Below the pieces are notes generated by a model that had not been told where the DNA came from, made no database searches, and was given only the letters and a program-made list of their open reading frames with translations. The translations under genes were made by a program, and so were the position numbers. 64,000 nucleotides of DNA from Paludibacter sp. (GTDB lineage Bacteria; Bacteroidota; Bacteroidia; Bacteroidales; Paludibacteraceae): assembly GCF_009712605.1 (NCBI RefSeq), contig NZ_WASO01000015.1, positions 372,001 through 436,000 on the forward strand. The letters are read 5' to 3'. Below are positions 7,070-9,391 of this stretch, in pieces (position 1 is the stretch's first letter; every line of letters begins with the position of its first letter).

Positions 7070-8155
7070 TTAATGGTGGAACAAACGCACACCGGTGTTG
7101 ATTAGCGTGATGCCCAATTTATCGCAAGTGTCGATAATTTCCTGATCGCGAATGGATCCCATCGGGGTGGCGATATATTTGACACCGTATTTGTGTGCCA
7201 GTTCGATGTTATCTTTCTGCGGGAAAAATCCATCCGATAGCAGACATGAATCGGGTAGCTGGTTCAACATAATCTGGTTGCCGAAAGCTTCTTCGCGTTT
7301 TTGTTCAATTAGTTGATCGAGGTCGGTACGTTTCAGGTCGGTGCGGTCTTTCAGAAACGAGTAATCGAGTTGCGATTTCTGGTACCAGATATTGGCTTTG
7401 CCTAATGCCAGCCCAGAGCAAAGTATGCGCGATTGCTGTCCGGAGCCGATGCCGATCACATGGCCGTTGTTAACCACGCAAATGGAGTTCGACATGGTAT
7501 ATTTCAGCGTGATGAAACCCAGTTTCAGGTCGTTCAGGATTTTAGCCGGTACGTTTTTGTTGGCGGTAACTACTTTGGAGAACATTTCGTCCGAAACGTG
7601 GAGGTTGTTTCGTTTCTGTTTCACAGTGATGCCGAACACCTCGCGCGACTCTACCTCTTCGGGTTCGTAAGCGGCATCGATTTCAAATACCACGAAGCCT
7701 CCTTTTTTCTTAGCGGCAAGAATCTCCAATGCTTCGGGTTCGTAGCCCGGAGCTACAATGCCGTCGCACACTTCCGATTTGATAAGCAATGCAGTAGCCC
7801 TGTCCACCGGATGGCTAAGGGCAATAAAATCGCCGAACGATGCCAGACGGTCGGTGCCGCGTGCTCGTGCGTATGCCGATGCCAGCGGTGAGAGCTCGTT
7901 TTTTATCAGGTAGGCCCCTTTTTCGGCTTCGGTCAGGACTTTGGCAACTGCCACGCCCGATGGTGTTACGTGTTTGAACGAGGTGGCAGCTTCGGTATTC
8001 AGCGTAGCGCTGGCTTCTTTTACCAGTTGCCACGAGTTGAGGGCATCCAGCACGTTAATTACACTCGGATTGCCGTTTTTAAGCGTCAAAGCGCCTTTCG
8101 GGTCAATTACTTCCGCATAATCCTGATAAGGATTCATTCCGTATTTCAGTTTCAT
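7070..8155 (-). CDS. purH: Phosphoribosylaminoimidazolecarboxamide (AICAR) formyltransferase, stand-alone
   Basis: Catalyses the penultimate step of purine synthesis, AICAR plus 10-formyl-THF to FAICAR. At 361 residues only the transformylase domain is present; the IMP cyclohydrolase domain that normally precedes it in PurH is missing, so that step must be encoded elsewhere. The catalytic Lys-His pair is visible as SFKHVTPSG (K61, H62). Other family blocks are YARARGTDRLASFGDF, VIGIGSGQQSRI, SDGFFPQKDN and the C-terminal LFHH. Several blocks look closer to eukaryotic ATIC than to E. coli PurH, by memory comparison. The start is the ATG at 8155. Confidence 0.93.
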   Translation of the reverse strand: MKLKYGMNPYQDYAEVIDPKGALTLKNGNPSVINVLDALNSWQLVKEASATLNTEAATSFKHVTPSGVAVAKVLTEAEKGAYLIKNELSPLASAYARARGTDRLASFGDFIALSHPVDRATALLIKSEVCDGIVAPGYEPEALEILAAKKKGGFVVFEIDAAYEPEEVESREVFGITVKQKRNNLHVSDEMFSKVVTANKNVPAKILNDLKLGFITLKYTMSNSICVVNNGHVIGIGSGQQSRILCSGLALGKANIWYQKSQLDYSFLKDRTDLKRTDLDQLIEQKREEAFGNQIMLNQLPDSCLLSDGFFPQKDNIELAHKYGVKYIATPMGSIRDQEIIDTCDKLGITLINTGVRLFHH

Positions 8156-8260: not shown

Positions 8261-9391
8261 TTACAAATCTTCTTCGGTCAGTACTTTTATGCCGTTATCT
8301 AATAGCAATTGAGCCGTGATGCCGTTGCCGGGTACGACCGATCCCGAAAAGTTTCCGTCATACACTTGTCCGCATCCGCACGAGGGACTCCGTTGCTTGA
8401 GGATGACAGTGGCAATGCCGTACAACCGCGCAATCTCTAGCACCTGACGGGCTCCCGCTTCAAAATTTGCGGTTATGTCTTCTCCGTCGGATGTAATTGC
8501 TCGTCCATTTTTGAGCTCTACCGCCGGACGCGGGGTAGGCAAGCCACCCATCTGTTCGGGACAGACCGGAATCAATACCTCTTCTTCTGCCAGACGCAAC
8601 ACTTTTTCATGAGGAACGCTCTCTCCGTTGTACCGGCAGACAAGTCCCAGCAGGCAGGAACTACAAAGTTTCATGCGATGGTTATTTGAATGAAATTGTT
8701 CGGCTTGAAGATTGTAGTTATCTTTACCTTTAATTTTTAGACACTTCCAAATTGCTTCAGCTTTTGCAAACAATAGCATTTCAATAGTTGCTATATCAGT
8801 ATGATTATGATCTGCAACTGATTTTAAAATTAATAGGTAGTGATTGTAAAATTCCGAATTGTCCAGTTTTTCCCAATTACCCGATATATCGCTGATTCTT
8901 TTATTTCCTTCTAGTACTTTGTTGTTTCTACTGCTTAAGATGGGAAATAATTGCTTGTCTTCGATGCTGTATAATTCCTGTAAACAATTCAAACTAAGAG
9001 ATACTCTCGCATCGAAAATAGCATATTGTTGTGGGTTATGTATTACCAACGCTTTTGACCACGAAGCGACTCCTTTTTTGCCAAGACGAATAAGAGATTT
9101 TGGAGCCAGTGCCATATATTCATCAATTGTGTCATTTGAAATCCTTTTGATTCCACCCCAGACAGAGATATAGGCCTTAATAATACGTTTGCGTTTGTCA
9201 CTATCGCTCTCGCTTTCCCATAACTCATGTAATTTCTTTTTCAATTCTACTGTTTTGTCAAAGCAAGTTTCACCTTCAAGGGTTATTCCAAAATTGGCAT
9301 GAAAATAATCCTCTTGGATCTTCCATTGATACCAATTTCTATTATCTAGATATTTAGAACAGTAACAATTTAAGGCATCAGTTAAATTCAT
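8261..9391 (-). CDS. Fusion: uncharacterised N-terminal domain + DUF523 (TudS-like) desulfidase domain
   Basis: 376 residues in two parts. Residues 240-376 are a complete DUF523 domain starting at its own Met (nt 8674): CSSCLLGLVCRYNGES, PVCPEQMGGLPTPR and KQRSPSCGCGQ carry the Cys positions expected to hold a [4Fe-4S] cluster; DUF523 includes the thiouracil desulfidase TudS. Residues 1-239 belong to no family I can name; the most distinctive block is GVASWSKALVIHNPQQYAIF followed by DARVSLSLN, with WGGIKRIS before it. The DNA of the N-terminal part is clearly AT-rich (about one third G+C in sampled blocks) while the DUF523 part is near or above half, suggesting that the two halves have different histories. 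The reading frame is open across the junction. Confidence 0.8.
   Translation of the reverse strand: MNLTDALNCYCSKYLDNRNWYQWKIQEDYFHANFGITLEGETCFDKTVELKKKLHELWESESDSDKRKRIIKAYISVWGGIKRISNDTIDEYMALAPKSLIRLGKKGVASWSKALVIHNPQQYAIFDARVSLSLNCLQELYSIEDKQLFPILSSRNNKVLEGNKRISDISGNWEKLDNSEFYNHYLLILKSVADHNHTDIATIEMLLFAKAEAIWKCLKIKGKDNYNLQAEQFHSNNHRMKLCSSCLLGLVCRYNGESVPHEKVLRLAEEEVLIPVCPEQMGGLPTPRPAVELKNGRAITSDGEDITANFEAGARQVLEIARLYGIATVILKQRSPSCGCGQVYDGNFSGSVVPGNGITAQLLLDNGIKVLTEEDL

What the first reader, a model, noticed from the sequence alone, without database searches (positions are those of the whole stretch)
8261..9391. Novel-looking fusion of an unknown domain to a DUF523/TudS-like desulfidase, with a sharp base-composition break
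The last 137 residues are a full DUF523 domain with all expected Cys positions and its own internal Met at nt 8674. In front of it lies a 239-residue domain I cannot assign, in clearly AT-richer DNA. Known RudS-type fusions pair TudS with DUF1722, which this N-terminal part does not resemble. The AT-rich half suggests that a foreign gene was joined to a resident desulfidase. The GVASWSKAL and DARVSLSLN blocks may be helix-hairpin-helix-like, hinting at a nucleic-acid substrate such as thiolated RNA or DNA; this last step is speculation.
Basis: partly seen in the sequence, partly recalled or inferred. Interest (0 to 1): 0.72.

Follow-up and report, generated by a model that had tools for sequence, protein, structure and literature searches.

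The report
DNA-glycosylase-like domain fused to desulfidase
A horizontally acquired gene for a protein shaped like a DNA base-removing enzyme has run together with its neighbour, a sulfur-removing enzyme, in some species of one bacterial genus; free-standing relatives of the front half often sit near anti-virus genes.

Summary
ORF 8261-9391 (-) is one 376-residue frame. Residues 240-376 are a complete TudS/DUF523 desulfidase. Residues 1-239 lie in AT-richer DNA (33.8% vs 51.9% GC), the largest GC step in any of 33 window ORFs. The front half can be placed, remotely: it models confidently (pLDDT 92.7) as an all-helical domain like HhH-GPD DNA glycosylases. The first 30 rows of the structural re-alignment are all DNA glycosylases (best Z 7.4, not decisive alone), and 14 of 15 relatives point weakly to Pfam OGG-like; the loop Asp (D127) is invariant, but the usual OGG lysine is missing. 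Free-standing relatives occur in Bacteroidota and Pseudomonadota; 6 of 11 surveyed loci have PADLOC-type neighbours. Among eight genus genomes, two are fused, one has two separate genes (one TAA between), one has TudS alone, four have neither. Best reading: a horizontally acquired, perhaps anti-phage, base-excision-type gene next to tudS, joined to it by absence of the stop between them, both halves probably working independently. Coupled excision plus desulfuration is not excluded but unsupported. The fusion is a local evolutionary event; the front family is the more interesting lead.

The parts
8675..9391 (-). Front domain, codons 1-239: HhH-GPD/OGG-like DNA-glycosylase-like protein, ordered 1-223, low-confidence linker from about 224
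   Evidence: AlphaFold2 pLDDT 92.7, blocks from residue 221 on at 59 and 42; structural rows; PF21790 below cut-off, E 0.029
8675..8722 (-). Junction codons 224-239, read through; the separate-gene species G006 has a TAA 9 nt before the TudS ATG
   Evidence: 233-aa ORF ending 2202, TudS ORF from 2212 in L003; junction sequences
8261..8674 (-). TudS/DUF523 desulfidase domain, codons 240-376 and stop, with internal ATG at 8674
   Evidence: PF04463 146.4 bits; aligned to 6z92 with C246, C277, C338, E279, S335, S337 on the cluster and catalytic residues (numbering)
9009..9011 (-). Codon of D127, invariant Asp of the putative GPD loop
   Evidence: D in 15 of 15 rows
9051..9053 (-). Codon of K113, invariant Lys, 4 residues after the position of the OGG2-type Lys (A109 here)
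   Evidence: K in 15 of 15 rows; spacing compared with five OGG2 proteins

Best explanation
Two enzymes whose neighbouring genes have merged. The front gene encodes a horizontally spread protein with an HhH-GPD-like DNA glycosylase fold that probably flips out and excises some modified or abnormal base, perhaps as an anti-phage function; D127 would be the catalytic Asp, and K113 may be nucleophile or DNA contact (inferred). It sits between a 116-aa gene and tudS in frame with tudS, so without the stop between them the two are read as one protein with a flexible linker. The TudS half keeps its catalytic residues and should still remove sulfur from thiouracil compounds at its [4Fe-4S] cluster. 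The halves most likely act independently. Shown: the ORF, the two domains, the species pattern, purifying selection on the front gene, a confident model. Inferred: glycosylase activity, defence role, independence of the halves, direction of the stop change.
For: Confident N model with DNA glycosylases in each of the first 30 rows of the re-alignment; PF21790 OGG-like in 14 of 15 relatives at E up to 1, best 7.5e-6; D127 in 15 of 15. Relatives stand alone on plasmids and chromosomes. Genus: fused in G000 and G002, separate in G006, N absent in G005. In G002 the TudS ATG is ATA. dN/dS of N 0.21-0.26. Defence-type neighbours of free-standing relatives: 8 of 30 proteins scanned singly, 6 of 11 loci; 147 PADLOC families for 48 neighbours against 2 for 48 control ORFs.
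Against: Foldseek finds no significant structural match (best E 0.51) and Z 7.4 is in a range that can mean only a common helical arrangement (note). The window domain is below the PF21790 cut-off (14.5 of 27 bits) and no sequence link to OGG2 is seen. The OGG-type Lys position is Ala, so activity is not assured. In the window's genus the gene is not among defence genes. N in G006 vs G002 has dS 0.635, above the neighbours' 0.225-0.507, so N may have been exchanged between species. No assay exists.
Confidence: 0.62

Rival explanations
1. The fusion is functional coupling: the front half excises a sulfur-modified base from DNA, own or phage, and the TudS half desulfurates what is released.
For: Both halves act, or should act, on nucleobases; N is under selection; in G002 the separate TudS start is gone. 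Adding DUF1722 redirects TudS to tRNA in RudS (passages of PMC11417400).
Against: G006 keeps them separate and G005 has TudS alone; among 24 loci with an N relative, TudS is near only in L011 and L012, both of this genus type.
Confidence: 0.05
2. The front domain is an ordinary DNA-repair glycosylase, not a defence protein.
For: The fold neighbours are mainly repair enzymes; in the window the ORF lies just downstream of what reads as uvrA (name by my own recognition, not scanned).
Against: Very patchy: 5 of 296 phylum genomes, counting the window's own and one weak partial match; defence-type neighbours elsewhere.
Confidence: 0.2
3. The front domain has lost catalysis and only reads DNA, for example as a sensor of modified or damaged bases.
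For: The OGG-type Lys position is Ala in 14 of 15 and Pro in 1 of 15.
Against: D127 and K113 are invariant; monofunctional HhH-GPD glycosylases such as MutY and AlkA lack that Lys too (recalled).
Confidence: 0.13
4. The fusion in the window is a sequencing or assembly artefact.
For: A single change could create or remove a stop in such a junction.
Against: A second assembly (G002, the same sequence as L011) is fused with a diverged junction and without the internal ATG.
Confidence: 0.02

Closest known systems
TudS (DUF523, PF04463; PDB 6z92 and others)
   Same: Whole domain, cluster Cys and catalytic Glu/Ser conserved
   Different: Here it follows a glycosylase-like domain; characterised TudS are stand-alone (passages of PMC10611767 and PMC11417400)
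RudS (TudS-DUF1722)
   Same: A TudS domain in a two-domain protein
   Different: No DUF1722 found
PF21790 OGG-like (putative 8-oxoguanine DNA glycosylase OGG-like)
   Same: Weak match in 14 of 15 relatives; by eye a similar G-x-S-T-Y-T-K stretch in a member, L032
   Different: Window protein below the curated cut-off
Archaeal-type OGG2 (MjOgg, SsOgg; PF22175)
   Same: Best structural rows, Z 7.4 and 6.1; same Lys/Ala-to-Asp spacing of 18
   Different: No OGG-type Lys (A109); no profile similarity
Brig1, Brig3 anti-phage DNA glycosylases
   Same: Possible way of working: base excision from phage DNA, in defence islands (passages of PMC11078745 and PMC13160076)
   Different: Those belong to the uracil-DNA-glycosylase superfamily; the N-domain models as HhH-GPD-like

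Membership tests
TudS / DUF523 (PF04463) | Match to the family model over its cut-off | tested here: met
   146.4 bits against 34.7
TudS / DUF523 (PF04463) | Three cluster Cys and catalytic Glu, Ser, Ser | tested here: met
   C246, C277, C338, E279, S335, S337 align to Cys10, Cys43, Cys104, Glu45, Ser101, Ser103
TudS / DUF523 (PF04463) | Desulfuration of thiouracil compounds with a [4Fe-4S] cluster | not testable with these tools
   Needs an assay
RudS | DUF1722 domain fused to TudS | tested here: not met
   Only PF04463 and a weak PF21790 at E up to 1 in the full protein
HhH-GPD DNA glycosylase superfamily | Overall fold | tested here: inconclusive
   First 30 rows all DNA glycosylases, Z 7.4 down to 3.0; Foldseek best E 0.51
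HhH-GPD DNA glycosylase superfamily | Helix-hairpin-helix followed by a loop with a conserved Asp | tested here: met
   Order of elements in the model and D127 in 15 of 15; no coordinates were at hand for a residue-level superposition
OGG1/OGG2-type bifunctional glycosylase | Lys at the start of the second HhH helix | tested here: not met
   Equivalent position is A109; five OGG2 have Lys there
OGG1/OGG2-type bifunctional glycosylase | Profile similarity to OGG2 | tested here: not met
   hhalign probability 0.2, E 0.3, outside the motif
PF21790 OGG-like | Score over the curated cut-off | tested here: not met
   14.5 bits against 27; relatives reach E 7.5e-6
Brig-type anti-phage glycosylases | Uracil-DNA-glycosylase fold | tested here: inconclusive
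   No such row is listed, which does not exclude it

The most novel reading that the evidence does not exclude
The free-standing relatives are a new class of anti-phage base-excision effectors with an HhH-GPD-like fold and a displaced lysine (K113), and in this genus one has been captured by a desulfidase to make a two-step enzyme that excises a sulfur-modified base from DNA and strips its sulfur. (The first half alone, without the coupling, I hold at about 0.3.)
Probability: 0.05. Interest if true: 0.85.

Novelty: new variant of a known kind. Interest (0 to 1): 0.47.

Why it matters
The fusion looks like a recent evolutionary event caught midway: absent, adjacent and fused states coexist in one genus. 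More useful is the front family: a scattered, unnamed glycosylase-like family with defence-type neighbours, in a fold other than that of the Brig anti-phage glycosylases. If its members excise modified phage bases, base-excision immunity would have arisen in another fold; that is directly testable with small, soluble proteins.

Tried and rejected
RudS-like fusion: rejected, no DUF1722. A known defence family for the N-domain: none in PADLOC for the full protein or for 7 relatives, none in NCBIfam for the full protein. Phage origin: no match for the N-domain in the phage collection; in viral contigs the full protein found one locus, matching only the TudS side, and the N alignment found none confirmed. 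Solved relative of N by sequence: none at E up to 1; at E up to 10 one match, 6gcs, E 0.75, taken as chance. Profile link to OGG2: none. Profile against one PF21790 member, L032: 35 columns at the C-terminal end, probability 67. More PF21790 members on plasmids: none. BFVD structures: none at E up to 0.001. Full-length model: N-domain as before, TudS half poorly predicted (four of 15 rows cover it), so nothing is said about a domain interface. Papers: two searches for OGG-like/PF21790, 80 for HhH-GPD anti-phage enzymes, 39 and 81 for DUF523 and DUF523-glycosylase fusions; no paper on this family or fusion in the listings I saw (capped lists; open-licence papers only). Passages only were seen of PMC10611767, PMC11417400, PMC11078745, PMC13160076, PMC13092281 and PMC10273834.

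Against the simple history: the neighbouring AICARFT-like gene puts G000 outermost, while the N gene puts G006 furthest (0.177 and 0.210 against 0.152), so exchange between species is possible, and whether the stop was lost twice or regained once is open.

Full report
WHAT IS THERE. The ORF 8261-9391 on the minus strand is one open frame of 376 codons. Pfam places 2-thiouracil desulfurase on residues 243-375 (E 7.2e-43), and the 137-residue tail aligns with TudS of known structure (6z92, E 1.6e-27). Read off that alignment, C246, C277 and C338 fall on the cluster ligands Cys10, Cys43 and Cys104, and E279, S335 and S337 on Glu45, Ser101 and Ser103, as named in passages of PMC10611767. The composition break is real: GC 0.338 against 0.519, GC3 0.297 against 0.522. 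The best within-ORF GC split is 0.193; the next of 33 window ORFs reaches 0.082.

WHAT THE FRONT HALF IS. A tblastn search of plasmids found 8 records with relatives at 28-43% identity, four of them Variovorax. A scan of named genomes confirmed 16 loci out of 80 candidate stretches, two of them (L011, L012) with the sequences of genus genomes G002 and G006. An alignment of 15 gave an AlphaFold2 model with mean pLDDT 92.7, nearly all helical, ordered to about residue 223. Foldseek against the PDB finds nothing significant; its first row is the M. jannaschii 8-oxoguanine glycosylase at E 0.51. Re-alignment of 992 chains puts DNA glycosylases in each of the first 30 rows: MjOgg Z 7.4, SsOgg 6.1, Pa-AGOG 5.7, MagIII 5.0, then MutY and OGG1. 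Such Z values can reflect only a common helical arrangement, so the weight lies on the uniform list and the coverage of the whole domain. Pfam's OGG-like family PF21790 shows in 14 of 15 members at E up to 1, best 7.5e-6, but the window domain is under the curated cut-off.

ACTIVE-SITE ANATOMY. The model has helices 97-101 and 108-118, a loop, D127 and helix 128-140, the order of an HhH followed by an Asp-bearing loop. D127 and K113 are identical in 15 of 15 rows. In five OGG2 proteins from this phylum the Lys of the second HhH helix precedes the Asp by 18 residues in four and 19 in one; that this pair is catalytic in OGG is recalled and mentioned for OGG1 in a passage of PMC13160076. Here a spacing of 18 lands on A109, and K113 lines up with a His invariant in those five OGG2. 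So this is not an OGG2, and whether K113 replaces the lysine is open.

HOW THE FUSION STANDS IN THE GENUS. Eight genomes of the genus are held. G000 (the window) and G002 are fused. G006 has the same two frames with one TAA between, 9 nt before the TudS ATG. G005 has TudS alone, 56 nt after the 116-aa ORF. G001 (78% complete), G003, G004 and G007 match neither half. In G002 the TudS ATG is ATA, so that species appears to make TudS only as part of the fusion. The order uvrA-like gene, 116-aa ORF, N or no N, TudS, AICARFT-like gene holds in G005 and G006. The N gene has dN/dS 0.21-0.26, weaker constraint than its neighbours' 0.015-0.106 but clearly purifying. Its dS against the window (0.49, 0.58) is near its neighbours' (0.50-0.73), while between G006 and G002 it is higher (0.635 against 0.225-0.507), so N may have been exchanged. 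The AICARFT-like gene gives the tree (G000,(G006,(G005,G002))) with support 83 and 69. On it, N was present early and lost in G005, and the stop was either lost twice or regained in G006. In four other Bacteroidota the N relative is 0.26-0.30 GC, at or a little below its flanks, in Persicobacter 0.42; in the genus it is 0.34-0.37 in richer surroundings. A tree sets the genus' N beside Anaerophaga, support 86/90. This fits acquisition from an AT-rich Bacteroidota source, but the donor is not shown. TudS is itself rare: 5 of 200 genomes of the family.

WHERE RELATIVES LIVE. One search listed 120 neighbouring ORFs of 15 loci. By hand, before any PADLOC result, I took 48 from 11 loci, leaving out four loci (L010, L020, L021, L022) and mostly short or distant ORFs. 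PADLOC at 1e-5 gave 147 families for these 48 (25 shown) against 2 for 48 ORFs from 12 hand-placed regions in six Bacteroidota genomes. Families overlap strongly, so this is not 147 independent hits, and the control is not matched for phylum: four of the 11 loci are Pseudomonadota. Thirty of the 48 were scanned singly at 1e-8: 8 matched, in 6 of 11 loci. They are a type II methyltransferase and a restriction enzyme (Anaerophaga), an OLD/GajA/AriA-like ATPase (Lutibacter), PDC-S06 (Aestuariibaculum), an IetA-like ATPase and a WYL protein (Rheinheimera), a WYL protein alone (Noviherbaspirillum; a general regulator, weak evidence) and UzuA right after the gene on a Persicobacter plasmid. The proteins scanned from Flavobacterium, Acinetobacter, Psychrosphaera and L030 gave none; those of L029 were not scanned singly. 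TudS lies near an N relative in 2 of 24 loci, both of this genus type.

MECHANISM. Most likely the front half binds DNA, flips out one kind of modified or damaged base and breaks its sugar bond with the help of D127; the abasic site would then block a phage, as reported for Brig glycosylases of another fold (passages). The tail separately recycles thiouracil compounds. No ThiI domain was found in 5 of 5 genus genomes, while 12 of 14 control genomes have one, so 4-thiouridine from the cell's own tRNA is a less likely source and scavenged or 2-thio compounds are likelier (inference). In RudS an added domain goes with a tRNA substrate (passages of PMC11417400), so a changed substrate here is conceivable; the separate and solo states in sister species argue for independence.

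VERDICT. Observation confirmed, interpretation partly right. The fusion is a local event of one genus; the front family, a remote OGG-like group with defence-type neighbours, is the lead worth testing.

Noticed in passing
window 7070-8155 (-): A 361-aa gene with only an AICARFT/IMPCHase-family match on residues 2-252, next to tudS; the genome has another, longer match elsewhere (G000:C3, frame of 541 aa), so it looks like a stand-alone paralogue.
   Followed up: partly
G000, G002, G005, G006, G007: No ThiI domain in 5 of 5 genomes of the genus although four of them carry TudS.
   Followed up: partly
L006:5998-7591: On a Persicobacter plasmid the N relative is directly followed by a GIY-YIG protein matching PADLOC UzuA (E 4.7e-62).
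   Followed up: partly
L024:5914-6960, L021:5629-6693, L022:5506-6630: N relatives with extra parts: about 110 residues behind it in Psychrosphaera, roughly 120-140 in front of it in Microvirga; not identified.
   Followed up: no
L019:2860-3512: A Persicobacter copy of the N gene changes frame in the middle: pseudogene or assembly error.
   Followed up: no
L005:2994-3386: A TudS-like stretch, 35% identical, on a contig of the viral collection.
   Followed up: no
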